The translations under genes and the position numbers were made by a program. Of a stretch of 64,000 nt of DNA, positions 4,549-41,200 are shown one piece after another. Position 1 is the first letter of the stretch. The number at the start of each line of letters is the position of its first letter. Source of the stretch: Hemileia vastatrix (lineage: Eukaryota > Basidiomycota > Pucciniomycetes > Pucciniales > Zaghouaniaceae); NCBI GenBank assembly GCA_030280995.1, contig JASXTE010000008.1:16972212-17036211 (forward strand), given 5' to 3'. A model generated the notes under the pieces. The model saw only the letters and a program-made list of their open reading frames with translations, had not been told where the DNA came from and did not search any database.

Positions 4549-5442
4549 ATTTTTTTAATAATATCCATCACACTTTTTCTCAATTTTTTACTAACTACAT
4601 TACTATAGGATTGCTGTGGGAAACTTGGATTGAAACCTCACCAAAAGCTAACTAGTGTACTTTGCCAGCTTGCCTATGGGATTTTGGCCGACTCAACTGA
4701 CAAGTATGTTTGCATAGCTGAAACCACTTCACTAAAGGCTTTGAAAACTTTTGTTAAAGACATCATATCTTTATACCAAAGCAAGTATTTACAAGAACTA
4801 AACGCTGTGGAGAAAACCAAGATTTTGAGGGAGTACGAAGACAGAGGGTTTCCGGGATGTCTTGGCAGTATTAATGGGATGCACTGGGAGTGGAAAAATT
4901 GCCCCACAGCCTGATCTGGTCAGTTCCAGGGGAAGGAAAAAACTCTAACAATGATATTGGAGGCTGTAGCAAGCAAAAACTTACAAATTTGGCACACTTT
5001 CTTTGGATCACCTGGAACTTTAAACGACATCAATGTTCTTCATCGCAGCAACTTTTTTGATAAACTTTTGGGTGGTAGTCAAGATGGTGTAACATATAAA
5101 ATAAAAAATAGAATTTATATAAATGGTTACTACCTTGCTGATGGTATTTACCCACCATGGTCAACACTGGTCAAAACAATTTCTCATCCGCAAGATGAGG
5201 AAAGCCAATATTACTCTAAATTACAAGAAAGTGCTAGAAAGGACATAGAACATGCTTTTGGGGTGTTTCAAAGTAGGTGGGGCATTCTAACCCAGCCATG
5301 TTGTCCATGGCATATCGAAGAAGTGAAGGAGACATTGACCTGTTGTATAATCTTACACAACATGATAGTGGAAGCAAAATCAGAATCAGATCCTTACCTA
5401 AATGAACAATTTGTTCAATGTCAACTTTCGACAAACCACTGA

Positions 5443-9355: not shown

Positions 9356-10561
9356 AGCTAGACCAAGAAAGCTATGTGGAACCACAATTTTTTTTACAAC
9401 TTTTTACCTTTCCCTGTACTCCTTTTGGACACAATGTGAGCATACAATGGACCAATTGATCCTTTCAACTGCCATCCACAGTATCCCATCCTTCCAATGT
9501 ATGTATATATCCACAGAGTAAAATTCAATGTTGCACTACAAGTATTAATTTCTGAAATAAACTTGAAATTGCACTCAAATTGGACCATTGAATACTTGCA
9601 TCATGTCCTAAAATAAGGGTGGGGAAAGAAAAAAATTTGTTAAGATTTTTGCATTTTCATAAAGCTTTGTATCTTCCTTTGTTTTTTCTTCACATATGTT
9701 ATTTCAATTCCTTCCACTATCTCCATACTTTCTTCTCCCAGCTTCCTCCACATCTTTTCAACTTGAATTTCTTACATTTTTTTCTTTTTTTCTTTTTCTC
9801 TTTCTACCCTTTTGTTCTTTTTTCTTCCCATTTGTTTTTCACTTATTTTATCTTAATATTTCTTTTCTTTCATCCATCTGCATCATGGCATCAAATATCA
9901 TGCTATTGTCTTCCATTCCCAACTCCATATGTTTCACAGCACATCTTCCTTGGCATATGTCAAATTTAGCTTTCAAACAGTCCTTACAGTATGTGATTTT
10001 TTTCTTATAATTCTTGCTCACACTGATTCCTATTTTTTGTGTTACACAGGGGGAAAAAACCCTGAACTAGATGTCAAGTTTAGTTTTTAGTAACAGGGCA
10101 CATTTCTGGGTCTGTTTTATGGAGTAACCCTGCTTTGACACATTCAGAGTGACCCTTTTTGTGCTCAGATTTTTTTTGTTTTTCTGACATTAGCATCCCT
10201 TTTCCTGGCGGCTTTTCCCTCACTTCTCTCATTCACAGTAGATATTTAACCTCATATCTGCCTTTCCTCCTCTTCTCACTCCACCTCTCACACCCTCCCA
10301 AACACTCCTCATTAAATGTTTCTTGCTTCCTCCCATACCTGCTTTCTATCTCAATTCTAGTTTCCCTCTCTACATTCCTCACTAGCCCACTTTTGACTCT
10401 TCATCACCCTTTTATGCATGGTTTCTAGAAAGTGATCTTCCTGATGGTAATTACAGAGTAGCATGAATGATGCATGTTGCCCCTATTACCTTCATTCTAG
10501 ATGAAAGATATGTAAACTTTACATTCTTACAACCTCATTCATCTCTCCCTTCTAGCCTCCA
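9356..10561. other. No gene seen; pyrimidine-rich
   Basis: T/C-rich sequence with several short open frames made of Phe, Leu, Ser and Pro. This is what strand composition alone produces, and I see no family resemblance. Confidence 0.5.
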
Positions 10562-11310
10562 TTTCCTCTCTCTTGCCACCTCCACCACCACCTCCACCAC
10601 CACCTCCTCCTGCCACCTCCACCACCACCACCTTCACCTCCTCCTGCCACCACCACCACCACCACCACCTTCATCTCCTCCTGCCACCGCCACCACCTCC
10701 TCCACTTTCACCTACTCCTTCAATCACCACCACCTCCTCCTCCTTCACATCCTCCTGCCACTACCACCACCACCACCACCACCTTCACCTCCTCTTACCA
10801 CCACCACCACCACCTTCACCCCCTCTAGCCAACACCACCACCACCACCACCACCACCACCACCACCACCACCACCACCACCACCACCACCACCACCACCC
10901 CCACCTCCTATTGCCACCACAATCTCCACCCCCACCTCTTCTTTCCACCACAACCACCACCTCCACCTTTACCTCCTCTTGCCACCACCACCACCACCTC
11001 CTCCTCTTGCCACCACAACCACCATCTCCACCTTCACCATCTCTCACTACCACCACCACCACTACCACTACCACCACCCCCTCTCACCACTACCCCCACC
11101 ACTACCCCCTCTCACCACCCCCACCACCACCCCCTCTCACCACCCCCACCACCACCCCCTCTCACCACCCCCACCACCACCCCCTCTCACCACCCCCACC
11201 ACCACCCCCTCTCACCACCACCCCCACCACCACCCCCTCTCACTACCACCACCACCACCACCACCACCTCCACATTCACCTCTTCTGGCCACCACTAATA
11301 CCACCTCCAC
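10562..11310. repeat. Long CCA/CCT trinucleotide array with a higher-order unit
   Basis: About 750 bp of C-rich trinucleotide repeat: CCACCTCC in the left part, a pure CCA run near 10,830-10,900, and a roughly 24-bp unit (CTCTCACCACCCCCACCACC) repeated at about 11,085-11,240. Open frames through it encode only His, Pro or Thr runs, so it is not a gene. Confidence 0.9.
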
Positions 11311-12309
11311 CTTTACCCCCTCTTTCAAATATATATATATATTAAATAGTAGAGGTGTTCTTAATTAAAATAAAAACATTATTTGCATCAAAAATGAATT
11401 AGGAAGATATATCCTCTTGATTCAAATCTTTAGATTGAAATTGATTATTTTAATATCATTGAATTTTCATCCTTATAATCCTAGTTATAAAGCACTACAT
11501 ATATTTTCTTTTTAATGGGTATATATACAAATATATAACCCAGAAAAGGTATTAAGTAGCTTTTGGATATAAACAAAACATCATTTTTATTTATATCAAT
11601 TTATTTTTGCAATTTCTGAAACTTACAATAATTGCTACCTAACTAAATCCTCAATTGCAAACTGAGAGAGCTGTAAAAAACAAATATGAAGAGTGTGAGG
11701 AAGAGACAAAATAGAATGAGAAAGAAAACCAGGAAAATAAAATGTATTATATCAGAATAAGAAATCTATCTAATTAAGAGGTTGAAAACATGAATTCCTG
11801 ATAAAAGTGAAAAAATAAAAGAACAAATCACTCATGAAGATTGAGGAAATGGAGGATAAATGAAAAAGGGGAAGGAGAAGTAACAAAGAGGGATTTTAAT
11901 TTCAGACAAAAAAGAATCAAGGGCTCTAAAATTGTTACTTCTAGAGTCACAAACTTGGCCCAAAAAGTGATATTCCATTTTTTTCACAGAAATGCACCCA
12001 TGACTGGAATAGGGTCCCAAAACAGAACTCAATGTCTAGTTCATGTTTTTCCCCCAGTGTTATATAAAATACCCAAATCAAATACTTTTCTCTGTGGAAC
12101 TTACAATGGGATCTAATTCTGGTGAGTTTTATTGGCTTCTTATTCTTTTTTCCTGTTATTTAGTTTTTTCTATCATTAAATTATATTGTAATTATATTTA
12201 ATATTTAATTTTCTCTTTTGTTAAAGTGCTTCTTATTTATATTTAGTTTTTACTAGATTTATGAATTTATATTTATCTTCTTTTTTTATTTTTTTTGAAT
12301 AGTGAAATT
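11311..12309. other. No gene seen; AT-rich spacer
   Basis: AT-rich sequence. A short open frame at 11,841-12,116 has no recognisable domain. It may be 5' sequence of the decayed gene that starts near 12,330. Confidence 0.45.
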
Positions 12310-12329: not shown

Positions 12330-13834
12330 AATGACTATTGAATCTACTAGCAGCTCTACTAGCACCATTGGCTGAAGTGTTGGTTTGTATCAGACTCAGT
12401 TAGTCCAAGAAGTATCTCAAGTTTTGGCTGCCCAAGCAGCCAAATAAAAATAAATTTTAAATTAGTTTGAAAGCAAACCGGCATCTAAGTATGATGGTAT
12501 TGTTGGTAAATTAGCTGAAAAGCTAAAATCTCACAATTAAAACAGTCATAACAATGAACCCACTAAATTGAATACATCTAAAATGAAGTTAAATGTTCAA
12601 GTTCCATCTTTCAAGGCAAAAAATAGTGATTATTCTCCTTCAAACACCTTAAAATCAACAGCTTTTCCTGCAGATGGATCTTCCAAAGCCCTCAAAATCC
12701 AGTCAATTATGTAAATAATGTCAATTCACATGTCCCATCTCCTAAGCATAATCTGATTCAACTTTAAACATCTGAATTTCCTTTGGACTTTGCCACAACA
12801 AAGGTGAGTCCTCTCTTAATTTATTATGTACTTACACAAGCTTATTCAAATTTAATTTCTAGAACACAATGTTTGTCCATATCAGGATTCTTTGGGGACT
12901 GACAAATAATGATGCAGTACCATCAGCACCAAGCCCTGATGAGCTTACTTTTTTTAATAGTAAATTTTTGGAGTTAAAAAAAGTTGAACTGGCTGTTGAA
13001 AATAATGCTTCACCTGCTCTCATTTCAATTGATTAAGTTAAAATCTTTAACTCATATTCTAAAGGTCAGGGCCAAATTGGCCACTCACTTATTTACCTGT
13101 ATCAAAACTTTATTCTGTATGAAAAAGGACTTCTGACACATTTAGGGCTAAGTATTTGGTGCCCTAATCTTGATGAGGACCGTTCATCACTCTATAATGC
13201 TTCTTAAAGAATCTCTGCTATCACAAATTTTTGAGAAATTGGTGCATCAAAGGCCTATGCATACTTGAACATCAATCTTTTTTATATAGCTGACATACCC
13301 TTACACATCCAGGTGTACAATCATTTTTTACACTTCTTAATTCTCATCCAATTCCAAAAAGAGAGAAAGAAACTGTCACTAATAAGAAAAAAAATTGAAG
13401 AAAAAAAGATTAAAAAGAACAGGGAGAAAGCAAGTGTTTCAAGACCTGTCTCTTTGATTTTATATTCTAACTTTTGTTTTACAGTTAAAAGATGCCCAAG
13501 TTGAGTTTGGAAAAAAGAATAAGTTTCCTAAAAAATAAATGAAAATATTAAACAAGGTTTTGAGAGCATAGTGACAATGAAATCATCAAAAAAAGGTTAT
13601 TATCTCATTAAAAACTTTCCATGCTGCTAGAAAAATTCTAGCCAAATGATGCAATGCTTGAACATATGCATGATTCAAGAATATGAGAAAGATCCTCTTT
13701 CTTGTTGCAAGATGCACTGTCTTCCTAAAAATCTAATCCCCTCAACATTTAAAATAGCCCAAAAAGGCCTCACTTATGATTTTTACAATGCTAAATGGTT
13801 CAAAAGCTTAGTTATATCTCAGAAGCAAACAATT
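12330..13834 (+). pseudogene. Decayed multi-exon gene, left part (repeat-family protein of unknown function)
   Basis: Starts MTIESTSSSTSTIG near 12,332. A clear intron runs from GTGAGT (about 12,805) to TTTCTAG (about 12,862) and joins FATTK to NTMFVHIRILWGLTNNDAV. Downstream are LSIWCPNLDEDRSSLYN, YLNINLFYI, a Lys/Glu-rich block and, just before the break, QKGLTYDFYNAKWFKSL. I recall a repetitive family of unknown function in rust and other basidiomycete genomes with this order of features. That is memory, not a search. Stops and frameshifts are scattered throughout. The frame runs to 13,834, where Harbinger element B interrupts it, and resumes at 21,024. Confidence 0.5.
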
Positions 13835-14236
13835 AGGGGGTATCAATGTTCAGGGATCAGCAATTAAATTAATTGCAGATAAAAATCCTTATACCCCAAT
13901 TATCTTCCGTAATTATTTTTGCTAATAATTGGGTTATTAGACACTTTACGTGTCAATGTTCACCTCTTATCCAACATTTTTTTACTCAATTTTTCATAAC
14001 CACATCTTGGACAACCTTCTGTCATAACCACATCTTGACCTACTTTCTGCCATAACCACATCTTGAACTACTTTCTGCCATAACCACATCTTGAACTACT
14101 CTCTGCATATGCCTTCTACCATTCTCATCCCATCCACTCAGAATTTCTCCTCATTTCTTCTCTTTGATTCTGCTCCTTTTCATCTTGCTATCTCATCTGC
14201 TTGTTTCTGCTCCTTTTCATCTTCATTTATAATAAC

Positions 14237-15583
14237 ATGCCTCGTCATCCTAGATCTTCTCAAAGGCAGCCATCACCCAGTTGTTCTTCAATTCCCACTA
14301 CTTCCTCTTTCCCCCGCTCAGCCAAGAAATCAAAGACCATTCAATTAAAAAAAGATGACCATCTCATTCTTATCAGCTGGCTGAAAACCAAATCTAACTA
14401 TGATTCTTGTTTTGGTACTGAGTATGCCACTAAAGTAGGACGGCCCCCCGCATCAAAAGTTAATGGCTATCTTCTAATGGCAAATGAATTATGGAATAAG
14501 ACCAAGGGAAGGATTGATCTTTTGCCTAAAAAGATGTCTGAATGATTCAAGCATTACCAAGCAAAATACAAGAAGGCAAAGGCTCTTTCATCTTCCACTG
14601 GTTTTGGGGTTACCGACATTGATATAACTAAGGGCATAAAATCTATAGACGATAAACTTGAAACTTTATGTCCTTACTTTAAATAGATGGATGCAATTTT
14701 TGGAGAGCGAGCCGATGTTAATCCTGTAAACATGTTGGATGGTGAAGATCCTATCTCCGAACATGATGTCAAAGCAAATCTTTTCCCATCCTGTTCCTCC
14801 ACTCAAGCCTCCCCTCTTCTAAATTCTACAAATCTAGATAGCTTTGCTATTGATCCTATTGGCAGTTTAACCCAACCCAATCTAACTCAGGTCTGTTTTT
14901 TTTTCTTTTATCTTATCAATACTTTTTTTTATTTACTTAGATTTTCTTATTTCTTAAAAGGCTGATGAACAAGCCCAGGACCCACAATCAACTGAGTCTG
15001 AAGCTAGCGACAATGATGAGGAGGAAAATGCTACGTTGAACAAAAAGTGAAGGGCTTCAAGTAGTCTAAATTTCCACTCCCAAAGAAGATGAAAAAGTGA
15101 TACTTCATCACAAACACCTTTTTCTTCAATGGAACAGTTTTTAGAGAAACATGATGCCGGTAAATGATATCATACTATTATTACTTTACTCTGCTTTTCT
15201 TCTACTTTATGTTAATTTTTATTCTCACTCTAGAACAATTGGAAATTGCTAAAGAGACTCTAAGCTTTGAAAAGAAGAAATACAAGCTCTCTTTAAGGAG
15301 GGATGACAGAGTACAAGATTTGGAAGAGAGGAAGTACAAGCTCTCCTTACAGAAGGATGATTGGGTCCAAGATTTGGAGGAGAAGAAGTTCGAGTTAACT
15401 CTTAGTATTGAAAAATCCAAAAAAGAGGAAATAACACTCGAGCATCAAAACTTAATTGAACAGATGAAGTATAAGCATGATCTCCAAGAAAGTTCTAAAA
15501 AGAAAGATTTTTTGATCAAATGCGTTAAAGCAAACAAATCTAATGAAGAAATAGAAAATTTAATGACATTTTTTGTTGACTAG
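14237..15583 (+). pseudogene. Harbinger B ORF1: Myb/SANT-like with coiled-coil tail
   Basis: Predicted DNA-binding partner of the transposase. Exons are 14,237-14,890, 14,961-15,159 and 15,234-15,583, joined by short GT-AG introns of 70 and 74 nt that keep the frame. A Ser/Pro/basic N-terminus is followed by LKKDDHLILISWLKTKSNYD, a Myb/SANT-like first helix. Then come VGRPPASKVNGYLLMANELW and KMSE-FKHYQAKYKKAK, then MDAIFGERADVNP and an acidic stretch. The last exon is a long Lys/Glu-rich coiled coil with a repeated YKLSLRRDD / YKLSLQKDD motif. Three in-frame stops (about 14,542, 14,684 and 15,048) lie where Arg, Gln or Trp would be expected. It pairs with the minus-strand transposase at 19,373-20,635. 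Confidence 0.78.
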
Positions 15584-15704
15584 AGCCTTTTATTTCTTTC
15601 ACACTTCATGTGTTCATATTTATTTGTACATAAATTTTACAATTATTTGTATTTCTTGAAATTTTGTATTTTAATGTTAAATATTCTTTTTTTAAATAAA
15701 ATTT

Positions 15705-16150
15705 TCAAGTCTCCTTTGAAAATTTGCCAAACCCCCACCCCTGCATTTTTTTGAAGTAAGGGTTGGGTATTACCAAAATTCTTTCTTGTCAAGAGTCTTG
15801 AAAGTCTTATATGAAACTTTGGCATTACTACCCCCTGCATTTTACTGGTATCCCTAAAATTCTTACAAGTCAAGAATTTCACAAGTTTTATAAGAAATTT
15901 TGATAATACTCCCCCCTGCATTTTATTGAAGTAATGGACGGGTATCACCAAAAATTTTTCACCAAAATATTTACAAGTCAAAAATTTTACATGTTACATT
16001 TGAAAATTTGGCAATACCCCCCCTAAATTTTATTGACTCAAGGGGTGGGTATCACCAAAATTTTTACAAGTCATCAATTTTGAATGTCAGATTTGAAAAT
16101 TTGGCAATACCCCCACCTGCATTTTATTGAAGTAAGGGGTGGAAGTCATC
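15705..16150. repeat. Tandem repeat, about 90-bp unit, five copies
   Basis: Units share CTGCATTTTATTGAAGTAAG, a GGGTATCACCAAAATTTTTA block and an ACAAGTCAA block. The CCCCC-CTGCATTT landmark recurs near 15,733, 15,827, 15,905, 16,013 and 16,105. It lies between the ORF1 and Tet-like genes of Harbinger B. Confidence 0.8.
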
Positions 16151-16442
16151 AAAATTTAATATAATTAAATAAATTATTAAATAAATATCTAATATATATC
16201 AATTTCCCTAGTTTAAAGTAATGAAAATTCCTCAAGCTAAAATGCAGATCAAATCTAGAAACAAAAGTTTGGGACTTTCCACAGGTATAGGCTAGAGGAA
16301 CCCCATGAAACAAATAAATGTTATCATGATTACCTGTTATACAACACAAGGTGGTTGGCCCATTACTTTAGTTGAGGAAATTGATATATAAAAAATATTT
16401 ATTAAAAATTTATGAAAAAATATAAAATTTTTGATGACAACT

Positions 16443-17665
16443 CTAATCCCCATACTTTTTGGATCTAGATAAAGTTTTTTTAAATTGATTAACTTTACCT
16501 TCTTTCTTTACCTTGTTGATTCTTTGAATCAACTTTTGACTTATTTGAAAAGAACAACCAAAATGAGTGAAATCTTGACAGGATTCCAATCCAGGAGGAG
16601 CTTTGGTTGTTTGATGATTATCCTGAGAAGAATTCCAAATAGTTTCGATGATACCATTTCCCAAAGAAAAATCAATGATGCACATGTGGTCTGGAAAATA
16701 TAAACCATGCCCTTTTATTTTAGCTGGAGATGGTATTGGTTCGCCAGTAATCGTATTGATATATGAGAATATACCAAAAGTAAGAAAATTGGTGTCATTG
16801 GTATTGGAGTGAATTTTATTGTGAAATCCAGAATGAGTGATAATAACATTATAAAATAAAAGATATTCATGGCTGATATCTTCCCATTCAGAGTCACACC
16901 AATTCGGTATTCCAACTTTGGTTGAAAGTTCATGATTTTTTTCAAATGCCTTATTACAGAGCTTTTTGAGTCAAAGAGCAAGAAAAGAATTAAAGGAAGG
17001 TAGAGTGTCCCATAAGCAAAAATCTTCATCTTTTTGTGCTTTAGTGATATTCTTGAGCAATGAATATATGCCTATATAATTGAAATAAGTGAAATGATAT
17101 TAAGAATGGAACAAAAATTATTAGACATACCAAGAGAATATCCTTTGACAAAACCAGGTCTCCAACCAAAACCAATCATGATACCACCCAACAAATTTGT
17201 ATTCCTTATAGGTAACCCAATCAAAGCCATTTGATAAAGAGTTATGATAAGATTTGATAGTTGATTAAAAGCTTCATCTTTTACACCATTGAATGAATGA
17301 ACTTCCAAAATGAATTGAGCCTTAAAAGTATTTCTGATAACTGCAACAACTCAATCATCTCCAAATTTGGTTAGATATTTGATATCTTCTGGTAATTTTT
17401 TTGGATATTTATTTTTTTTATATACTTTAGTTTTATAAAAAAAAATGTTTGAGATATGACCAAAAAAACTTTCACAGAGAATTTTTTTTTAATATCTTTT
17501 CTTCTGATGAGACTGATTATCATTAATTTTTTTTGATGATTTAGACGATGATTGTATGGAAGTTGATTTCAAAGAAGATGATAGAGATGATAAAGATGAA
17601 GATGACAAAGAAGATAAAGTTGAAGATGAGAGAGAAGTAAGGGGTGAATCTGAAGTAGAAGACAT
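16443..17665 (-). pseudogene. Tet-like 2OG-Fe(II) oxygenase carried by Harbinger B
   Basis: It resembles the Tet/JBP-like 2-oxoglutarate/Fe(II) dioxygenases that are abundant in basidiomycetes and thought to oxidise 5-methylcytosine. Exon 1 runs 17,665-17,131 and starts with a Ser-rich tail (MSSTSDSPLTSLSSS). A 59-nt intron (17,130-17,072) is followed by exon 2 to 16,443. Landmarks are GFGWRPGFVKGYSLG, TKVGIPNW, HNKIHSN where the family has an HxD iron-binding motif, GHGLYFPDHMCIIDFSLGNG, ETIWNSSQDNHQT (likely distal His), and DFTHFGCSFQISQKL. The Asp of HxD is Asn and the expected Arg of the FTR-G pattern is His, so activity is doubtful even without the three in-frame stops (near 17,488, 17,352 and 16,969). 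It lies wholly inside the terminal repeats. Confidence 0.72.
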
Positions 17666-18239
17666 TTTTTTTGATCTGAAAAAAATTTAAATGTCAATAA
17701 AATTTCAACTCAATTTTTTTTAAAAAAAATTCTCACCTAATAATAAAAAAAAATGTTTTTTTATTTGAAAAATAAATTGGAAAAAAAAAAACAAAAACAA
17801 AAACAAAAAATCAGTAAAAATTTTTCCAAAAAAATAATTTATCAAAAAAAAAACCTGAGGTTTTATTTTTAAAAACAAAATAAAAGCAAAATCCTTTAAA
17901 AAAAAAAAGTAATTCAAAAAAAAAAATTTCAGTAAAAATTAAATCAAAAAAAAAAAAAAAAAAATTAAAAGTGAACCATAAGATTGGTTATTAAAAACCT
18001 TCTCACAAGATCCTGAAAAAAAAAAAAAATTCAGTAAAATCAAAATCAAAAACAAAAAAAATTTTTAAATAAAAAAAAAATTCAGAAAAATTATTTACTA
18101 GAAAAATTAAAAATAAAATTATAAACCTTTTTTGATTTGTAAATAAGAGGGACAGTCCTTAACAGAATGAATTTTTTTTTTCTATAATACTGCCAAAAAA
18201 ATTAAAAAATTAATCAAATTTACAAAAAAAAATTTGTTA
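17666..18239. other. No gene seen; A/T homopolymer-rich
   Basis: Dominated by A and T runs upstream of the Tet-like gene, so it could contain its promoter. No coding exon is visible. Confidence 0.5.
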
Positions 18240-18915
18240 GTATATTTATTTGAAAGTAGGTAACCCCTCTTTATCTCCCATAAATGTCCCCTTTTCCCCT
18301 CCTTTATTTATTTGAAATCCCCTTACAAATCCCTCCCTCCTTGCCTCAAATGTTCCCTCAAATCCTCTACTTGCCTGCCTCAAAAACCCCCAGAAACCCC
18401 CTGCTTAATTGTCTCAAAACCCCCCTTTACCCTTCTTTATATGTCCCAACCCCCCCATTCCCCTCTCTTTAGCCACCTCAAACCCCCCCTTCCACTTGCC
18501 TTACCCCTACCCACTCCCTTACCTCCTCCTCTACCCCACCCCTCCTTGTTAACAAACAATCGGTAATGATTGTTTGTTAAGAAAAAGGGGGGGTAGAGGA
18601 GGAGGTAAGGGAGTGGGTGGGGGGTAAAGCGAGTAGAAGGGGGGGAAGGGGGGGTTTGAGGCAGCTAAAGAGAGGGGAAGGGGGGGTTTGAGGTGGCTAA
18701 AGAGAGGGGAAGGGGGGGTTTGAGGCGGCTAAAGAGAGGGGAAGGGGGGGGGTTGAGGGACATAAAGAGAGGGGAAGGGGGGAGTCTTGAAGCACCTAAA
18801 AAAAGGGTAAGGGGGGGTGATGAGGGACCTAAAGAGGGGGGAAAGGGTGGATTTGAGGCAGCTAAAAAGGGGGTAAAAAGGGGGGCCTTGAGGATGATAA
18901 AGAGAGGTGAAGGAG
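18240..18915. repeat. Large inverted array of a G-rich 34-bp unit (hairpin)
   Basis: The left arm is C-rich and the right arm is G-rich. Both are built from a tandem unit of about 34 bp such as TTTGAGGCGGCTAAAGAGAG with runs of five to nine G. The centre is a perfect 13-bp stem: TTAACAAACAATC (18,549-18,561), loop GGTAAT, GATTGTTTGTTAA (18,568-18,580). Arms extend about 310-340 bp each way. Open frames here reflect base skew only. Confidence 0.88.
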
Positions 18916-19372
18916 AGAAAAAAAAACAAAAAAAAGAGAAAAAAGAGAAAAAAACAAAAAAAATTAGTTTACCCTAGAACAAAAATAATTGAAGCACTTA
19001 CAAAAAAAAACAAAAAAAACAAAAAAAAGCAAAAAAAAAAATCATGATTAGCAAATAAAAAACCAAGAAAAAAGAAAAAAAATGACCTACCTGGTGAGTT
19101 GAGTTGAGAAAAAAAATGCAACCAAAAAAACTGAGTGATGTTTGAGGAGAGGATGAAAAGGATATGAGTGATGAATGAAAAAAAAAATCACTGACAAAAT
19201 ATGCAATTTCATGTTGAGCTGGTGAAAGAAAACCAATGAGCCATCCAAAAAAAAGATATTCACCGTAAATTCAAAAAAAAAAATGAATATGCAACAAACC
19301 AAAATACAAAAACAAGTGAATAAAGTACACAAAGAGGACATTTGGAAAGTATGAAAAAATAAAAATTAAAAA
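18916..19372. other. No gene seen; A-rich spacer
   Basis: A-rich sequence between the inverted array and the 3' end of transposase B. It may hold the terminator of that minus-strand gene. No coding signal is seen. Confidence 0.45.
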
Positions 19373-20635
19373 TTAAAAGCGTTGCGAAGTGAAATGTTGG
19401 AGAGTAATTGGCATTATAATGGAGCGTATGCTGGTTGATTGAATGATTTGTGAATCAAGGGAGGGGAGTGCCGGTGGTGGTTCAGGATCCTCTTCTTCAT
19501 AAATATCATTCCACTCATCCTTTAAATCAGCTAGAATATTGTGGAGTATTACGCAAGTCAAGATCCAATGATTTGCAGTTTTGATCTCCAATTTTTTTTG
19601 AAATTGGATTCTGAGCTCCCAAAGACTAGAAAATCGTCCCTCTAAAATACCTATAGCATATTAAATTTGTACTCTTGATTGTGCAAGGTGATAATTAAAG
19701 GCAGTTTTGGGGTCATTTTCTGAAGTTGCACCACAGAAAGCAGGTATAATGTACTTTCCACTTGCATATGCTGGGTCTGCAAGGAGGTACTGAGATTTGT
19801 CAAAGTATGAGTCAGGGGATTGAGAAATCCTCATTCTTTGGAAGACAGAAGATTCATGACATGATCCAGGGAAGCCACTGTGAAAAGCAATAAATTTTTT
19901 ATTGACATCACATACAAGTTGAATGGCAATAGAGTATCTAGAAAGAAGATAAAAAGTTAGATTTTGAAAGATGAGAACTTGGAGAAGATTTTGAAGAAAC
20001 CTTTTTTTGCGATCAAAATAATGGTTGCCATCATGAGCAGGCTTTTGACTCAAAGGGATGGTTGTGCCATCAACAAAACCTATACAGCCAGGGAAACCTT
20101 CAGCTTGCATTACTTGAGAGGATTCAAGTCGCTGTTCTGGAGTTGGCCAAGCAAGAGTTTGAGACTTGAGGGAAAGGATAGCAATCATACAGCGCTTGGT
20201 GTATAATATCATGGTACCATATCCTATGTTAAAGAGATTATCCAAACGTCTTACGGCAGCACCATTTCCATTTGAGCGAAAGCGACATAGAGCAACAACA
20301 AGTTGGATTGCAGGATTACGCTGTTTGTTATGAGAATTGTTATGGAAGATAGGATGTTGAGAAATGAGTTGATTATGTTTGAAGAAAGAATTGGGAGAAG
20401 TTCTAAAAAGTTGCATGAAGTTTAAATGAGGAATGTTGAGAATGGAGGCCAGATCATATTGGGGATCATGATAAATATTTGGCCCCCTGGTGATGATGTA
20501 ACACTTTTTGTAAAGAAAACACATATAAGCTAAAGCATCTTCCAAATCAGAGTCAGATTTATAGTAAAGAACTAAAAGAAAAGTGATAGCATTCATTGTT
20601 GAGTGAAGTAGCTTCCTAGTAGAGAGGTGCTTCAT
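19373..20635 (-). pseudogene. Harbinger B transposase (DDE_Tnp_4 type), one stop
   Basis: Nearly intact Harbinger transposase. Exon 1 is 20,635-20,001 and exon 2 is 19,937-19,373, joined by a 63-nt GT-AG intron that links FDRKKR to YSIAIQLVCD. The first catalytic Asp is in GFVDGTTIPL. The second motif reads SGFPGSCHESSVF, with Glu where the family has Asp. The region around the third catalytic residue reads SRVQI-stop-YAIGILEGRF. The TAA lies exactly where the family has Glu (RxxE), so one substitution removes both the catalytic residue and the tail. The tail resumes in frame with ANHWILTCVILHNIL. Upstream NIPHLNFMQLFRTSPNSFF and VALCRFRSNGNGAAVRRL form the helical N-terminal part. Confidence 0.85.
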
Positions 20636-20903
20636 TGTTGTTGGTGGAAGGGATATGTGATGAGGGAAGTGGGAAGTGGAAATTCACCGCCAAATGTGCA
20701 GTTGAGGTGTTTAGATAGAAAAAAACTTAAGTGTTTGCCACCAGAATTAAGTGGAATAGAGTAAGGAAAGACTTAAGTATGGCATCAGCAATTATGAGTC
20801 ATGTGACTTTCTTGCAAATCCATCATGGATGTGATGAGTTTGGGATCAGGAATTAGGGATGGAAAGTGGGGTATAAGAGGCGGGATAATGCATTATCGTG
20901 GAT

Positions 20904-20939
20904 TTCTTATCCACTAGCCCTGGGGCTAGTGGATAAGAA
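20904..20939. repeat. Near-perfect 17-bp-arm hairpin inside the right end of Harbinger B
   Basis: TTCTTATCCACTAGCCC, a two-base loop, then its exact complement. It lies about 80 bp inside the right terminus, in the subterminal region. It could be a transposase-binding or structural site. The left end has only a shorter palindrome (GCAATTAAATTAATTGC) about 24 bp in. Confidence 0.85.
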
Positions 20940-21023
20940 TCTTCCACAATTAATAATGTCTGATCCCGGGAAAAAAATTCCTGATCCCTAATTGCGGATC
21001 CCTGAACATTGATACCCCCTATT

Positions 21024-28398: not shown

Positions 28399-30640
28399 AT
28401 GAGTGCTCCCCGGGACAATGTAAGTGAAAAGCCTGCTTATAATACCAGGTCTAAAGCTAACAAAAACATTGCTCCAGGACATAACCATGGAGGGTCAGTC
28501 ATACCCCCAGGCAGAGCAAATGACATAGAGGAAAAAGACGCCCTCTTAAAAAAGATTACCATAAAAAAGACATCTCCTCCTCTACAGGATCAACTATCCC
28601 ATCTGGAAAAACAGGTACTGAAGTTGGAGGAATCAAAGTCCCTCATGCTCAAGGAGGTAAAGCAATTACAGAACAATTGCAAGGTAGGATTTCAGCAGAT
28701 GAACCAATTATTGGCAGAGCTAAAGGGAGGCCATCCAAGTTAGCAACCCCCTACCCCAGGAGGGTCACATAACTCCCAGGAGAAAATACTGGTAGACAAA
28801 TGGAAGTGGTATTGGTTCCATCAACATTGGTCCAGTCACAACTGCAACATGGATCCTTTTCCTCATCAGACTTCCTCAGTTCACCCCTACAAGCGAAAAC
28901 AAAGGCACCAAAAATCAGGGCTCACACAAATCCTGTGGTAAGTAGATTACCCTCTCAGATTATACACAATACTGATAAGTACAATGTAGGTAATATTATT
29001 GATGTCAAATCTGTGCAGAAAATAGAGGAGGACTTAAGAAAATTAGGTTTTAATGTAGATACACCTGACTTGTCTTTTGTCAATAACAACAGTAGTATTT
29101 ATAATACAGTTAATCCTCAGTTGCCACCACTTACTAGTGAGATGAGAAGTTCACAAGAGAGTGAGAGAATTGAGAAGGAAGACATGGAGTATTTTAATAA
29201 TAATCCAACTTTCCATAGAATTGTTTCAGCATTATGGAATAGAATGACTGATTGTGAGGAACAGACAGTTAAGCTCACAAGTGATACAATTTCATCCTTA
29301 ACATTGAATATTTCTCAACTGGCAACACGTAATAAAGAATTAGAGAATGAACATCTGTCTCTAACTCTTAAATATGATTCATTGAGTAATAAATATAATT
29401 AACTTTCAAACAAATTCTGTGAGTTGGAAAAATTGTATGAAACACATTTATTGAAAACTGAATCAAGAACTAAGTTATCTTTTTCACAGACAAATCAAAG
29501 TTTCTCTGAGCTGCTACAAAGATTGACTAAAGTTGAGATTGAAACTGCCAATCTACTAATGAACCAGGATAATCATAAGTAAACTCAGTATAATAATCAT
29601 CCTTTCATTGGCAAAGGTGAATCTCATTCCTTCCCTATACCACCACAACTAAAACCATTTGGTGGTAGTGTCAAATCTGAAAATGTAAGTCACAAATCTT
29701 TACAGGAGGAAATACAAGACCATTTATCAAGAGTAAATGAGTTGTTAAATTTACCTAAGATTAGGGAAATAAAATCCAATCAGAAGAACTGGCCTAAGAT
29801 AGATCAGTACCCAACTTATGATGGGGAAGCCAGCTCTGATTGGCAAAATTTTATTCAAAGAATTGACAACTGGAAATTCTCATATAATTTACCAGATGAA
29901 TAAATAACATAAAAATTAATCTCTTTATTTAAGGATTTTGCTTTATTATGGTTTGAAGCTGTTTTGAGTGAGGGTAAAGATTACTCTTGGGCTGAATGGA
30001 AACAACTAATTGAAAAAAAATTTGGAGGCTCTAAATTCAGGATCACTCAGAAGAGACTTTATGAGAAAACTAGGTACAATCCATTGAATGGTGACAAACC
30101 TAAGGTATTTTTAATGAATTTAAATAAAATATTAAAAGCCATTGAGCCTAACATGGATTTTAACTTATGGAAAGATAAGATAATATGTAAATTACCTATA
30201 TCTGTCAGAGACATTGTTGTAGCTAGAACAATTAATGTTACTGAATATTCTGACTTTATTAATATTTGAAATAAAATATTACTAAACCATAAGTATGAAG
30301 CAAGTTATTCCACTCATAAACAAAATGTTGAACCTGTGAAAAATCAGAATTCAAAAACACTTCAGGAGAAGAAGAAAAAACCTACTGCACCTGTAGTACC
30401 AAAAAATTATGAGACAAATACTTGTTATAAGTGTAACAAACCTTGGGTTAAAGGTCACAAATGTGAGAAGAATATAAATATTGTTGAAAATCAACATGAA
30501 TCTGAAATTGAAACAGAGAAAAGTAAAGATTCAAGTGATAATGACAGTAATATCTCATATAGTGATGAAAATGAAGTCTGTATTTTGGAAGATTATTTGT
30601 CCATCTTTGACAATCTAATATTGAATATGGACTCAAATGA
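28399..30640 (+). pseudogene. gag of gypsy element 1
   Basis: Structural capsid/nucleocapsid region. It starts MSAPRDNVSEKPAYNTRSKA, has a coiled-coil-like segment (QDQLSHLEKQVLKLEESKS) and later the retrotransposon capsid block YPTYDGEASSDWQNFIQRID and WAEWKQLIEKKFG. It ends with a CCHC-type knuckle CYKCNKPWVKGHKC at about 30,423-30,464. Internal stops lie at 28,741, 29,400, 29,579, about 29,901, 29,910 and 30,267. Most fall where Gln or Arg would be expected from flanking sequence. Confidence 0.85.
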
Positions 30641-31010
30641 ATCTTTAATGAATTTTGAGGATGCTGAAATCATTAAAGATATACCAGCTGATAACTTTAG
30701 AATGACACCTATCATGGTTCCAGCTATCATTTCTGGTGAAAACGTTAATATAGTATTGGACACAGGAGCTTCTGGCTCTGTTGTTTCTACTAATACATTG
30801 CAGAAAATTCATAGTGAATATAAGTCTAAGCTTGAACCCCTTCGAAGTAAAAATTGGAGAGGTTTTGGATCAGTACTAAATCCCATTGGTAGATACAAAG
30901 CTGCTGTTTTCTTTAAACATCAACATGGTTATGTAAGAGTAACTTGTCACTTTGTAGTAATGGATAATACTAACTTTAGTAACTGTTTTATCATTTGAAA
31001 TGATATTCTG
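30641..31010 (+). pseudogene. Aspartic protease of gypsy element 1
   Basis: VNIVLDTGASGSVVS at about 30,747-30,790 is the retropepsin active-site motif (DTGAS), intact. It sits in frame after the acidic C-terminus of gag. An in-frame TGA at about 30,996 separates it from the reverse transcriptase frame, which continues with NDILTKFGVKL. Confidence 0.85.
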
Positions 31011-32857
31011 ACTAAGTTTGGTGTGAAATTAGACCCTTCTAATAACAATTTTACAATTGGCATGAATGGTAAAAGGAAATTTAAAATAAATTCTTTTAAC
31101 ACAGTCTTACACATTGAGTCAGTAACAAATATTCTGTGCAAAGGAAGAGAATCCAATGAGATGGAACTTCTGGAAAAAGAAATTTCAAAAGCATCATTTG
31201 GCACTCAGATAAGTGAAGCTGATAAAAATAATATTTTGAACTTAATTAAAGCATTCCCAATGGCTTTTTCACATGGTACAAATGAACTTGGCCTTGTTAA
31301 AGATCATGAAATGAAGATTAGTTTAACCTGTGACATGGATAATATTCCTGCTAGTCTTAAAAAGAAACCATACCCTGCTTCACCAATGAAGAGGAAAGAC
31401 ATAGAGGATAATATTAATATTTTATTAAAAATGAACATTCTTGAGAAGGTTGAAACTACACCAAAATATTGTGTAATATCACCAGTGCTAATTTCTTATG
31501 AACAAGATAAAGCAAGACTTTGCAGTGATTATAGAGCATTAAATACATTTACAGTAGATGATATTTATCCCTTGCCAAGGTTTGCCTCTATACATCCTAC
31601 CCTTAAAGGTGCTAAGTATATAAGTTGCTTAGATGGAAATAAAGGGTACCATCGAATTCCTGTTGAAAAGAATTCACAGAACTTTTTGTTGATAACAACA
31701 CACATGGGAATTTATAAATATGTCAGGATGCCATTTGGACCAAAAAATGCTCCATCAGTATTTCAGAAGTTAATGGATATAAAATTCCATAATGAAATGA
31801 TTGAGGGATGGTTAATGGTATACATTGATTACATCATAGTGTTCTCTAAGACATATGATGAACACTTAATCCATTTAAAGAAGGTATTTCAGAAAATGGA
31901 TGAAATAAAAATGACCCTTGCATTGAAAAAATGTAAATTTGGGTTTGAATCTTTAAAAGTGCTTGGTCATATTGTATCAGGCTTAAAAATATGTGTAGAC
32001 CAAAATAAGGTGGCTGCAATAAAGAATATTGGAATTCCTCAAAATGTAAAAGATGTACAATCGTTTCTTGGTATGTGTGGTTATTATAGACAATATATAA
32101 AAAACTACCAGTTAATTTCTGCACCATTGACCACACTGATAAAGAAATCAGAAGCTTTCATTTGGAATAATGAAAGACAACAGGCTTTTGATAAGTTGAA
32201 AGAATGCTTGATGATAGCTCTTATCTTGGGATTACCAGTTTTTTAATTACCTTTTGTATTATATACAGATGCAAGTTTTATTGGTCTGGGTGCTTTTTGC
32301 ATCAAAAACAACTTATTGAAGGAAAAATTTCAGAAGGAGTAATTTTCTATATTTCACGTACTCTAAGAAGAAGTGAATTGAAATATGGTGCTACTCAACT
32401 TGAATGTTTGGCAGTAGTATGGGCTCTTGAGAAGCTACATTATTACCTGGAAGACCAAAAATTTGAGTTAATAACAGACTGTAGTGCTGTGAAGTCACTC
32501 TTAAACATGAAAAATCCTAATAGACACATGTTTAGATGGCAATTAGCTGTACAAGAATACAGAGGACTGATGACTATTACACATAGAGCAGGAACCTTAC
32601 ACTCTAATGTAGATTTGTTATCTAGAGTACCTCTGCCTAATAATGATGATAATCCTGCTTATGTTCCTGAAACAGATATTATTAACATTTATGGCATTTA
32701 TGTTGTAGATCTTGAGGATAAATTTATGCAATCAATTCTTGATATGTATGCTTCAGATCCTGACTTGGGTAAACTCACTACAATATTAAATGATCCATCC
32801 AATTCTTCAATGAATGTTTTAATAAAAACATTACCAAAAAGTATAAAGAGGCATTAG
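31011..32857 (+). pseudogene. Reverse transcriptase and RNase H of gypsy element 1
   Basis: Polymerase region that copies the element RNA into DNA. Landmarks are LVKDHEMKISL, KKPYPASPMKRKDIEDNI, ARLCSDYRALNTFTVDDIYP, YISCLDGNKGYHRIP and KYVRMPFGPKNAPSVFQKLM. The active site reads YIDY (31,821-31,832) in place of YIDD, so the second catalytic Asp is lost. SFLGMCGYYRQYI ends the connection domain. A TAA at 32,244 splits PVF from LPFVLYTDAS, the RNase H start. A frameshift near 32,330 leads to GVIFYISRTLRRSELKYGATQLECLAV and LITDCSAVKSLL. Confidence 0.9.
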
Positions 32858-32869
32858 AAGAAGGAAAAT

Positions 32870-34017
32870 TTTCCATTTAGGATGGTTTTATATATTACAG
32901 GAAAAAATTAATTAATGTAATTGTAATTTACTCTTCAATGAGGAAGTTAATGTTAAGTATATGTCATGATGATATATTAGCAGGTCATTTTGACTACCAT
33001 AAAACATTAACCAGAGTAAAAAACACGGCTTGGTGGATTAACATTTCTGAGGATGTTCAAAAATATGTTGAGACATGTGATTCTTGTCAAAAATCTAAAA
33101 GATTAAAAGGCAAAAGAGCTGGTTTATTACAACAAATTGAGAAACCAAAAGCTCCATGGGAAATAATTAACATGGACTTTGTAACAGGTTTGCCAATAGC
33201 AGGGAATAAGAGTTATAACTCCTTCTGGGTAATTGTAGATAGATTTACGAAGATGTGTAAATTTATTCCTACCCACAAAGAGGTTTCTGCAAAGGACTTA
33301 GCTTTCTTATGGTGGACACAAATGTTAAATATAGCAGTTTTCCCCAAAGCAATAGATCCTGACAGAGATCCTAAATTTACTTCTGAGTTCTGTACATCAC
33401 TTATAGATGTTTCAGGGTGTCAATTAAAACTTTCTACAGCACACAATCCACAAACTGATGGGCTAGCAGAAAGAATGATACAAACTTTAGAAGATATGAT
33501 AAGAAGATATTGTGCTTTTGGTCTTAAATTTAAAGACAATGACAAATTCATGCATTATTGGGTAACCCTTATCCCAGGTTTAGAATTTTCATACAATAGT
33601 ACAGTACATTCTGTCACTGGCAAAAAGCCATTTGAGTTATGGTTGCGTTATGTACCTAATACCCCTGTTAAAACTCTTAATAAATTACCTAGATTGGATA
33701 TCCATCCAGGTACTAAATATTTTCTTCAGATTCAAGAATTATGCAGAAAACATGCTCAAGAATGTATAAATAAGGCGTTTGAGTATGAGAAGAAAAGATG
33801 GGATAAAGCGCATAAAGAACAAGTGTTCAAAGAGGGTGATGAAGTCCTTATTTCTACACCACATTTCAATTTAAATGGTAATGTTAAATTGAAGGATCCA
33901 TTCATTGGACCATTTGTAGTTAAAAAGATGGTTGGTAACAATGCTGTTGAGGTTATTCTATATGAACCATATGTTTCCAGTATATCCTATTTCTCTTATA
34001 AAACCATACCATTCTAA
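32870..34017 (+). pseudogene. Integrase of gypsy element 1
   Basis: Inserts the cDNA into the genome. The zinc-binding N-terminus shows HDDILAGHFDYHKT and CDSCQKSK. The DDE core has NMDFVTGLP (Asp, about 33,174), DRDPKF (33,361-33,378) and GLAERMIQTLE (Glu, 33,469). All three catalytic residues are present. FSYNSTVHSVTGKKPFEL and an FKEGDEVLIS / FIGPFVVKK segment match the gypsy C-terminal GPY/F module. This is the best preserved part of the element: 359 codons are open from 32,938. Stops occur just upstream. Confidence 0.9.
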
Positions 34018-38227: not shown

Positions 38228-41200
38228 ATGAAGAGTAAAACTCTAAAAAAATCTGCCCATTTCCCCATTTTTCAACTGAACTTTCATAGATCTTTCTATG
38301 TGTTTCATTCTTTATTTAATGACCCAATACTGGAAACTTTGACATCCTTGTGTTACATGAGCCATTCTTCTCCCCTTAAAATTTCTCTCCTTCCCTGGCC
38401 AGGGGTTGGAGCCTGATATCTTCTCTCCACTCACCCTCTCCTTCTCATTCTACCCCTATTTGCTGTTGTTTTTATGTTAACAAAAAACTACCTATTCATC
38501 TCTTCACTGCAATATCAAGCCTGTCTCTTGATTTTAACCTTCCCCCTCTTTTTTTGATATGTGCTAACCTATATAATCCTCCTTTATCCTTCTCAAGCTC
38601 CCAATTTATAACCCTATCTTATCACAACTTTTTTAATATCCTCACCTTCCTCTTTTCAGACTCCAATTTGCATCATGACTTATGGGCCAGTCAAACCAAA
38701 CACCACTTTAATCATACCAAGTCCTTATTCTTCATAAACTCCCTCTCTGATCTGAACATTTCTATAGTCTCTCAAGCAGGCATTCTGACCTTTTTCAACA
38801 CCCAGAATTTTACCTCAGTGATTGACCTGATGTTTACAAACCATAAAGCCACTGTAAAGCTGTTTAGTTACATTAAAGAACAAGATGGTCCCTCTCTCAC
38901 CTATCTAACCACACAGCAATCACCATTCAAATCCTCCCTCTCCCTCTCCCCACTCTCCAAAGAAACTCATTCAGAAATTAGCAAAAGCTTGATGAGTCTT
39001 ATATCCATTCTTCTATCTCCTCTCTCCCCCATTTCCCCATCTTCTTCCCCCTCTTCTATTGAATTGGCTTCTAAAAAAGTCAACTCTCATCTTATTTAAA
39101 TAATTGAAAACTTTTTCCTTCTGCAGAAGCCCAGATTTTTGTGTCATGCATGGTGGAATTGCAGTATCTTGGATCCCCTCAAGAAGAACTTCTACCAAGC
39201 CCAGTGCCACATGAGGCTCTCCCCTGCACCACACCTCAAGGCTGAGCTCCTGTCAGTGAGAAAGTTTTTCAGTGCTAATATAAAATATCTTTGTAAACTT
39301 AATTAGAAAGAATATCTCTCTTCACTCAAGCCCTATACCCTCTTCAAACCAGCTAACTACAACTCTCATTTTTCTAACTCTTGGGTCAACCCTTCTCTGT
39401 TGAATCAAGATGAATTACTTATAATTGAAAATTTACTGAAGGCCTGTCTTCTCATTGAGGGAACTTCAGTAGCATCTATTTCTTGTGAACTATTAGATAC
39501 CAAAACTCCTCCCCCTCCTTCACTTGTCCCACCTTCTCCCCCCTTTGTGGTACAGGAGATCACTGGAGTTCTTTTCAACAAAAATAAAGGCAGGGCTCCT
39601 GGCCCAGACAGGATCCCCAACTCCCTCCTTCACTGCAACCCAAAAGCTGTGGCATACATTCTACTCCCTCTCTTCCATAAATTTCTTGAAATTGGACATT
39701 ATACTAACATCTGGAAGACTGTGAGAACAGTCATCATCCCTAAGCAAAATCTCCCAGACTATTCAGTCTCAGGCGCCTACTGTCTCATAGCCCTCCTCAA
39801 TACTATGGGGAGCTACTAGAGGCTTTAATAACCAAACACCTCTCCCATTAGATAGAAATAAAGCACTTGCTCCCTGAAACTCACTATGGAGGCTCTCCAT
39901 TCAGAAGCACATCAAACACTCTTCTTCACCTGACTACCTTGTCTTAAGACCAGTGGAGGAGAGGTAAAGTTGTTGGAGCCCTGTCTCTAGATGTAAAGGG
40001 AGAATTTCCATCAGTTAACAAAACTAGAATGTCCCATATTCTACCATCTCTACTTCTCCCCCATAAACTGGTCTCCCTAGTTGATAATTTTATGGTAGGC
40101 AGGAGAACTAGCATAGCTTTCACTACCTACAAATACCCAGTTTCTTTCTCTCCCAAGGGACTCCCACAAGGATCCCACTTTCTCAACACTTATATGTTAT
40201 CTATAATTATAAGCTCCTAACTCTCCCTTCCCTCTCTCATTCCTCACTTGCACTGGGTTACCTTGATGATGTGGTATACTTATAAAATAGCAAGGATACT
40301 TAGGTGGTGTTAGATGTACTCTTAAAGTTGGGAACAGAAGCAACTACATGGGGAACTAGACATGCTGCATTTTTGACTTTTCCAAGACTAAATTGATACT
40401 TTTAACCAAGAAAAAAAACATTCTAGCTTCACCTACTCCTCTCAAATTTGATGGATTTTTCCATAGCCCTTCTCCTACCCTGAAGTGGCTTGGAGTCCTC
40501 CTTGACGCCCTATTTTAACAAGTTAATAGAAGAAGGTCACCAAGCTTCTGCATCTATCCATTGTTTAGCTTCATCAGGCTGAGGAATTACTCTGAGAAAA
40601 TATAGCATGTTGATAAAATCTTTGGTAAATTCTAGAAAGGATTATGAATCTATCATCTGGCACAATACTAAGAGGAATTTGAGAACTACCCAACTTTTAC
40701 AGGTGGTGGGAAAAAAGCCCTAATAAGAGCCTTAGGCTACTTTCAATCCACACAGGTAAGGCTCCTCTTACATGGCTCACATTCCCTCCCCTTAAATAAG
40801 TGGTTAGACCTTACAATGAACAAAGCATGGGCAATACTCTTCAACATTCCATCCACAAACCCCATGGCCCAACTGGCTAAATCCCTCCCCAAATCACACC
40901 AGCATTAAATACACATATTTTCAAAAACAAATATATCCCCCCACCTTTCCTCCCCTGACTGACTTAGACTCCCTCCATCACTCCCCACTCCCACCTTGTC
41001 TTCACCCTTTTCCTATCTAACTTTGAAAGCTCAAAGGATTTGGCATGTTTCAGGATAAAAAAATTAATCTCATCCAAGCCTTCCTCTTCATAAATGATTT
41101 AAACCAACAGCTCCAAATCACAGTCAGGAAAATTTTCAGATGCTTTTTACCCTGGAAAAAGAATCCCATTTGTGGCTTGACTAGGTGACCAAAAACTCTA

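What the first reader, a model, noticed from the sequence alone, without database searches (positions are those of the whole stretch)
13835..21020. A Harbinger-type transposon that carries a Tet/JBP-like DNA-demethylase-type gene
Between matching terminal inverted repeats and a 3-bp duplication lie an ORF1, a DDE_Tnp_4 transposase and, between them, a Tet-like 2OG-Fe(II) oxygenase gene. Tet/JBP-like genes are known to be expanded in basidiomycetes and linked to KDZ-type transposons. Carriage by a Harbinger-type element is, to my knowledge, not a standard description. Such cargo could demethylate the element or its target and so counter host silencing. The gene lies wholly inside the termini, so it would move with the element.
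Basis: partly seen in the sequence, partly recalled or inferred. Interest (0 to 1): 0.88.

Follow-up and report, generated by a model that had tools for sequence, protein, structure and literature searches.

The report
Rust transposon carrying a Tet-like gene
This is a dead copy of an abundant Harbinger-type jumping element of the coffee leaf rust fungus that carries its own Tet-like DNA-oxygenase gene; elements of this kind were described in other rusts in 2025, and this one adds a host, a different target-site footprint and signs that the gene is an old, maintained part of the element.

Summary
Window 13835-21020 is a DNA transposon: inverted ends (33 nt, 97%), ATT duplications, ORF1, a Tet-like 2OG-Fe(II) oxygenase (PF20515, E=7.9e-23) and a DDE_Tnp_4 transposase (E=1.5e-12). 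Assembly numbers identify the host as Hemileia vastatrix (coffee leaf rust). This copy is dead: each gene has in-frame stops and the oxygenase HxD motif reads HSN. One copy of a second family, with other termini, has the same layout; its genes are 56-62% identical and its oxygenase dN/dS (0.16-0.22) is like the transposase's. In 10 of 20 copies exon 1 is replaced by one shared segment. Novelty is limited: Kojima 2025 described Tet-carrying Harbinger elements ('PHISTA') in other rusts. PHISTA is defined by TA duplications; here 15 of 15 copies and three empty sites fit 3-bp AAT/ATT ones, and ORF1 is weakly Myb-like. A new variant of a known kind. Anti-silencing is the likeliest role but untested; the copies are strongly CpG/TCG-mutated.

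The parts
13832..13834 (.). target-site duplication ATT, left
   Evidence: same 3 bp at 21021-21023; 15 of 15 copies with both ends show AAT or ATT on both sides; three gap-free empty sites
13835..13866 (+). left terminal inverted repeat (AGGGGGTATCAATGTTCAGGGATC...)
   Evidence: 97% complementary to 20989-21020
14237..15583 (+). ORF1: three inferred exons 14237-14890, 14961-15159, 15234-15583; N-terminal part weakly Myb/SANT-like in two of three other copies scanned, C-terminal part coiled-coil-like; in-frame stops in the window copy
   Evidence: exons read by eye and from other copies; Pfam Myb_DNA-bind_4 E=0.009 in L024, 0.023 in L033, none in L029, all below the cut-off; stops
16443..17071 (-). 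Tet-like oxygenase exon 2 (catalytic part); in-frame stop at 16971-16973; HxD motif reads HSN
   Evidence: PF20515 E=7.9e-23; an open copy, L030, matches profile positions 49-211 at E=2.5e-28; motif
17072..17130 (-). inferred 59-nt intron, GTATGT..TAG
   Evidence: read by eye; joins the frames GYSLG / IYSLL
17131..17665 (-). Tet-like oxygenase exon 1 (serine-rich start plus N-terminal part of the domain); in-frame stop at 17351-17353
   Evidence: matched by tblastn in 9 of 20 fetched copies, one of them (L034) only in a second, inverted match; open in L029
18397..18913 (.). G-rich/C-rich spacer with tandem and inverted repeats between oxygenase and transposase
19373..20683 (-). DDE_Tnp_4 (PIF/Harbinger-type) transposase; in-frame stop at 19661-19663 where L024 and L051 have the E of IEHAIGIL
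   Evidence: the full-length 436-aa frame in L027 matches DDE_Tnp_4 at E=1.2e-25
20989..21020 (-). right terminal inverted repeat
21021..21023 (.). target-site duplication ATT, right

Best explanation
A decayed copy of an abundant PIF/Harbinger-type DNA transposon of Hemileia vastatrix. ORF1 and the DDE transposase cut the element out and insert it into AWT targets, duplicating 3 bp (the footprint is shown; the biochemistry is inferred from the superfamily). The Tet-like oxygenase is a regular third gene of the element, kept by selection for at least as long as the two families compared have been separate (shown by copies and between-family dN/dS). Its likeliest job is to oxidise 5-methylcytosine on silenced or new copies, so that the transposase is expressed and methylation-linked C-to-T mutation slows (inferred, untested). 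Copies that lack the oxygenase's first exon have spread as well, so they were probably moved or helped in trans by complete ones (inferred).
For: Termini, duplication and domains in the window. Oxygenase exon 2 in 19 of 20 fetched copies. At least 150 exon-2 copies at 89-100% identity, 107 of 150 without stops (capped list). 10 of 10 sampled stop-free copies have the left end in the predicted 301-bp stretch, 7 of 10 the transposase at the predicted offset. A second family, read from one copy (L051), has other termini and the same order and strands. Between-family dN/dS is 0.16-0.22 for exon 2 (three copies) and 0.33 for exon 1, against 0.20 for the transposase N-half. Empty sites for 3 of 15 insertions.
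Against: No activity or expression data. The copies are heavily C-to-T mutated at CpG, above all TCG (0.358 and 0.182 per site against 0.017 elsewhere), so the gene does not fully protect them. 10 of 20 fetched copies lack exon 1 and still spread. Within the family the selection signal is mostly lost when forms A and B are separated, and silent sites between families are near saturation (pS 0.56-0.80). Some other copies have also lost the HxD Asp (L030, L039). In the sample, 3 of 10 had no transposase at the tested offset.
Confidence: 0.6

Rival explanations
1. The oxygenase is a passenger or host-derived gene without benefit to the element; it rides along and decays.
For: Exon-1-less form B makes up 10 of 20 fetched copies; stops are common in the fetched copies; within-form selection is weak.
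Against: Between-family dN/dS 0.16-0.33; 107 of the 150 best exon-2 copies are stop-free; the same layout in a second family.
Confidence: 0.2
2. The oxygenase makes a modified base (5hmC or another mark) that acts as a signal or guards DNA ends during transposition, rather than removing methylation.
Against: No partner gene such as a glycosyltransferase was recognised inside the element (only the ORF pieces given to Pfam were examined).
Confidence: 0.15
3. It is a member of PHISTA, and the TA footprint reported for PHISTA is a misreading of the same A..T-edged termini.
For: All 15 copies can also be read as TA duplications; only empty sites decide. The nearest named transposases are from Puccinia striiformis and P. 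coronata, 46-57% identical. Kojima's Figure 1 shows one representative insertion per family (legend).
Against: PHISTA termini, trees and sequences could not be seen; some Harbinger relatives do make 2-bp duplications; P0001 and the others were not shown to be PHISTA.
Confidence: 0.4
4. One-off insertion of the oxygenase into a plain Harbinger element.
For: None found.
Against: 19 of 20 fetched copies carry exon 2; 10 of 10 sampled exon-2 copies have the left end; second family with the same layout.
Confidence: 0.01

Closest known systems
PHISTA, Tet-carrying Harbinger elements of rusts (Kojima 2025, PMC12730594)
   Same: Harbinger-type transposase plus a Tet/JBP-like gene plus a third protein, in rust fungi; transposase closest to named Puccinia proteins.
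   Different: 3-bp AAT/ATT instead of TA duplications; ORF1 with sub-threshold Myb/SANT similarity in some copies, where PHISTA third proteins are said to have none; host Hemileia, not mentioned in that paper's main text. Shared clade not tested.
Canonical PIF/Harbinger and Nuwa
   Same: DDE_Tnp_4 transposase, inverted ends, 3-bp duplication, a second, possibly Myb-like protein.
   Different: Carries a Tet-like third gene; the duplication reads AWT (the usual TWA of PIF/Harbinger is recalled, not from a call).
PU-type Tet/JBP dioxygenases of rust transposons
   Same: PF20515 Tet-like domain inside a rust DNA transposon; the HxD motif is present in open copies.
   Different: Only 44% identical to the two relatives found, both from environmental contigs; not compared with Kojima's sequences.
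KDZ (Kyakuja-Dileera-Zisupton) Tet-carrying transposons
   Same: Tet/JBP gene inside a fungal DNA transposon.
   Different: Different transposase superfamily; the KDZ members described make 7-8 bp duplications.

Membership tests
PIF/Harbinger superfamily | DDE_Tnp_4-type transposase | tested here: met
   E=1.5e-12 in the window, 1.2e-25 in L027
PIF/Harbinger superfamily | inverted ends | tested here: met
   33 nt, 97%; both ends found in 14 of 20 fetched copies
PIF/Harbinger superfamily | 3-bp target duplication | tested here: met
   15 of 15 copies with both ends AAT or ATT; gap-free empty sites for 3 of 15
PIF/Harbinger superfamily | second protein with Myb/SANT domain | tested here: inconclusive
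   Myb_DNA-bind_4 E=0.009, 0.023, none and 0.42 in L051, all below cut-off; none in P0053 or the window pieces; model too poor
PHISTA (Kojima 2025) | TA target duplication | tested here: not met
   empty sites fit 3 bp, not TA
PHISTA (Kojima 2025) | carries a Tet/JBP-like gene | tested here: met
   PF20515
PHISTA (Kojima 2025) | third protein without Myb/SANT | tested here: inconclusive
PHISTA (Kojima 2025) | transposase in the PHISTA clade | not testable with these tools
Tet/JBP dioxygenases | Tet-like 2OG-Fe(II) domain over the curated cut-off | tested here: met
   82 bits in the window, 100 in L030, cut-off 27
Tet/JBP dioxygenases | HxD iron-binding motif | tested here: met
   met in other copies (L027, L038: HID; L021: HTD), not met in the window (HSN) or L030 (HTN)
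Tet/JBP dioxygenases | oxidation of 5mC | not testable with these tools
   needs an assay
KDZ transposons | KDZ transposase | tested here: not met
   transposase matches are DDE_Tnp_4, DDE_Tnp_1 and Plant_tran

The most novel reading that the evidence does not exclude
The Tet-like gene is an ancestral core gene of a rust Harbinger lineage, inherited together with ORF1 and transposase and selected about as strongly as the transposase, here in a rust outside Puccinia and Austropuccinia. The lineage truly makes 3-bp AWT duplications, and the TA of PHISTA is a misreading of the same A..T-edged termini. An exon-1-less form lives off complete copies in trans, which makes the benefit of the oxygenase testable within one genome.
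Probability: 0.4. Interest if true: 0.55.

Novelty: new variant of a known kind. Interest (0 to 1): 0.42.

Why it matters
A transposon with its own putative DNA-demethylation gene is a direct test case for the conflict between host methylation and mobile DNA. Here complete and exon-1-less forms coexist in one transposon-rich genome, beside CpG-starved retrotransposon copies, so methylation and mutation can be compared between forms. The 3-bp footprint also bears on how Tet-carrying Harbinger elements of rusts are classified.

Tried and rejected
Rejected: one-off insertion; TA duplication for this family; KDZ membership.

Led nowhere: AlphaFold2 models of oxygenase exon 2 (mean pLDDT 46) and ORF1 (50); Foldseek on the ORF1 model, best E 4.2; the solved-structure sequence search for exon 2, one chance match; Rfam on the window, 0 matches. 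The oxygenase protein search found two relatives among 59 candidates, both 44% identical from environmental contigs; the ORF1 search found one among 93, 39%. The comparison of CpG content (O/E 0.21-0.32 in six copies of this family, 0.31 in L051, 0.07 and 0.09 in two Gypsy stretches, 0.13 in the rest of the window) is not used as evidence of protection, because the Gypsy masters may have been CpG-poor from the start; a planned control with more Gypsy copies got no answer. In one search the exon-1 dN/dS value came from an alignment slip at a leading stop and is replaced. Matching the 40 strong left ends to 77 of the 150 places gave 2 pairs, so ten copies were sampled directly. Of the 15 joined-flank tests, 3 gave gap-free empty sites (L021, L025, L039); L022 matched tandem repeats beside itself and L030 and L034 aligned only with gaps (not counted); 9 gave no junction-spanning match in the sequence held.
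Full report
WHAT IS THERE. Window 13835-21020 has inverted ends (33-nt arms 13834-13866 / 20989-21021, 97% complementary) and is flanked by ATT on both sides. Inside are ORF1 (+), an oxygenase (-) and a transposase (-). Pfam: 16443-16970(-) is 2OG-FeII_Oxy_6 (Tet-like), E=7.9e-23, profile 85-211; 19661-20683(-) is DDE_Tnp_4, E=1.5e-12. The oxygenase reads as two exons (17665-17131 and 17071-16443) with an inferred 59-nt GTATGT..TAG intron, placed by eye.

THIS COPY IS DEAD. Each of the three genes has at least one in-frame stop. The oxygenase HxD motif reads HSN, where L027 and L038 read HID and L021 HTD; L030 (HTN) has lost it too. The transposase stops where L024 and L051 have the E of IEHAIGIL. 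Open copies of single genes exist: the transposase as a 436-aa frame in L021, L027 and L038; oxygenase exon 2 in L030 and L038, and in L029 up to a stop near its end.

HOST. The genome has 747,610,610 bases in 791 contigs, one contig being 71,415,227 bases. The Hemileia vastatrix Race I assembly has 747,980,110 bp, 794 scaffolds and a largest scaffold of exactly 71,415,227 (PMC10652848, part 1 of 2 of the text read). The host is therefore coffee leaf rust, by inference from these numbers.

COPIES. The left 401 bp gave 42 matches, 40 of them strong and one of these the window itself (only 40 of 3,410 candidates were scored). The next 20 by score were fetched, 9 kb each, so the set leans towards close relatives. 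Oxygenase exon 2 is in 19 of 20; L036, a truncated end, lacks it. Transposase of this family is in 15 of 20, counting a 36-aa fragment in L037 and a decayed one in L034; L029, L032, L033 and L036 show none within the 9 kb, and L040 shows only a 48%-identical one. Both ends were found in 14 of 20. In 10 of 20 (L022-L026, L028, L031, L032, L034, L040; form B) oxygenase exon 1 and the spacer are replaced by a shared ~0.8-kb segment with no long open frame; the breakpoints lie near element positions 3253 and 5097, the first inside the oxygenase intron. L034 also has a second, inverted exon-1 match of 79% about 5 kb away. To the right of the segment, L023-L026 and L031 are 88-89% identical to the window against about 94% on the left (pieces of L022, L028 and L034: 85-92%), and near-fixed differences between forms A and B are 44 in transposase, 9 in exon 2 and 0 in ORF1 exon 1: form B looks like a recombinant.

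GENOME-WIDE. PF20515 scored 150 places, all above the cut-off (cap reached; 10,849 first-look candidates); 0 of 14 control genomes matched. With L038 exon 2 as query, 150 places again (cap; 15,053 candidates) match over 214 or more of 218 residues at 89-100% identity; 107 of 150 have no stop (the list holds the best-scoring copies). Ten were picked at steps through the upper two thirds of that list (ranks 2 to 95, all stop-free): 10 of 10 have the left end within the predicted 301-bp stretch, each after AAT or ATT; at one 151-bp stretch where transposase was predicted, 7 of 10 hit transposase, 1 (L057) hits the neighbouring spacer and 2 (L055, L065) hit nothing.

TARGET SITE. All 15 copies with both ends, the window included, read AWT|AGGGGG..CCCCCT|AWT with the same W on both sides: 10 AAT, 5 ATT. 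A TA reading (GGGGG..CCCCC) is also possible in every copy, so empty sites decide. L021's joined flanks match window 32587-32296 over 292 columns without a gap (90%); L025's match L004 over 296 without a gap (94%); L039's match L028 over 270 without a gap (91%, that site reading TTT). Each fits a 3-bp duplication; TA would need three more bases. The other 12 of 15 gave no usable empty site.

A SECOND FAMILY. Locus L051, fetched around a PF20515 hit, has other termini (TAGGGGGTCTCAAACTTGACCAAAT), flanked by AAT, and the same order and strands of ORF1, oxygenase and transposase. Identities are 61-62% (oxygenase exon 2), 56% (exon 1), 57-61% (transposase) and 59% (ORF1 core). dN/dS is 0.16-0.22 for exon 2 (three copies against L051), 0.33 for exon 1 and 0.20 for the transposase N-half; the transposase C-half and ORF1 are saturated at silent sites. 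The three genes have diverged to a similar degree, as expected if they travelled together. L048 also shows ORF1-like sequence beside an oxygenase, judged by eye, but its right side could not be fetched.

SELECTION AND DECAY WITHIN THE FAMILY. Pooled over copies, pN/pS falls from singletons to shared variants in exon 2 (1.06 to 0.37, p=0.001, 20 copies) and transposase (1.45 to 0.47, p=5e-5, 12 copies), less in exon 1 (1.09 to 0.53, p=0.11, 10 copies) and ORF1 exon 1 (0.97 to 0.77, p=0.5, 19 copies). Split into forms A and B the signal is lost for transposase (A 1.40 to 1.35, B 1.01 to 0.91) and weak for exon 2 (A 0.64 to 0.44, p=0.40; B 0.79 to 0.29, p=0.048). That the clearest remaining value is in the form without exon 1 does not fit a simple story. 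The between-family dN/dS is the stronger evidence. C-to-T change is 131 of 366 at TCG, 122 of 670 at other NCG and 255 of 14,864 at other C, on strict-majority sites: the TCG bias that Kojima cites for Pucciniomycotina repeats. The elements have been exposed to methylation-linked mutation despite the gene.

LITERATURE. Kojima 2025 (PMC12730594; parts 1-5 of 7 of the text and the figure legends read, supplement not open to me) describes fifteen Tet-carrying Harbinger families with TA duplications in five Puccinia species and Austropuccinia psidii, names the lineage PHISTA, says that their third proteins lack Myb/SANT, and proposes escape from silencing. Hemileia occurs 0 times in that main text. 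In the held library a search for 'Hemileia vastatrix' + Harbinger + dioxygenase found 0 papers; one with TET + DNA methylation + transposable found 5, of which 3 were listed and none, by title and start of abstract, concerns this.

READING. What it works like: a Tet-carrying Harbinger element whose oxygenase most likely counters methylation (inferred). Whether it is PHISTA: the defining TA duplication was tested and not met; clade membership could not be tested. Either this is a sister variant with a 3-bp footprint, or PHISTA's TA calls, shown as one representative insertion per family, need the same empty-site check.

Noticed in passing
window 4915-5442 (+): Another Harbinger-type transposase piece (Plant_tran E=2.6e-58, DDE_Tnp_4 E=1.7e-11), of a different kind from the element studied.
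   Followed up: no
window 28773-34017 (+): Gypsy-like LTR retrotransposon genes (reverse transcriptase, integrase); 32296-32587 is the empty-site counterpart of the L021 insertion.
   Followed up: partly
window 38380-39819 (+): LINE-like endonuclease (Exo_endo_phos_2 E=3.4e-8), followed by a frame at 39307-39819 that looks like reverse transcriptase by eye but has no Pfam match.
   Followed up: no
window 13995-14106, 15775-16065, 18642-18913: Tandem repeats inside the element (28 bp x4; 81-108 bp x2; 32-33 bp x8); the last lies in a G-rich/C-rich imperfect palindrome. Function unknown.
   Followed up: no
whole window; L029 insert: Strong CpG depletion: O/E 0.14 for the window, 0.09 and 0.07 in two Gypsy stretches, 0.21-0.32 in six copies of this element and 0.31 in L051.
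   Followed up: partly
G000, places: Many PF20515 hits are open frames of about 290-414 aa that match nearly the whole profile in one exon: other Tet-like gene classes than the window's, carriers unknown.
   Followed up: no
L052-L070 left ends: 8 of 10 sampled copies have an inner terminal-repeat variant (GTTGACC.ATC instead of GTTCAGGGATC), several with transposase stretches 98-100% identical to the copies in hand: subfamilies that appear to share a transposase.
   Followed up: no
L051:7390-7633: A 244-bp inverted left end of the window's family (96% identical), with a 33-nt match to the opposite terminus at its edge, beside the second family: a possible short non-autonomous end fragment.
   Followed up: no
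window 10467-11368: Long low-complexity stretch rich in His/Pro/Thr codons, open in several frames.
   Followed up: no
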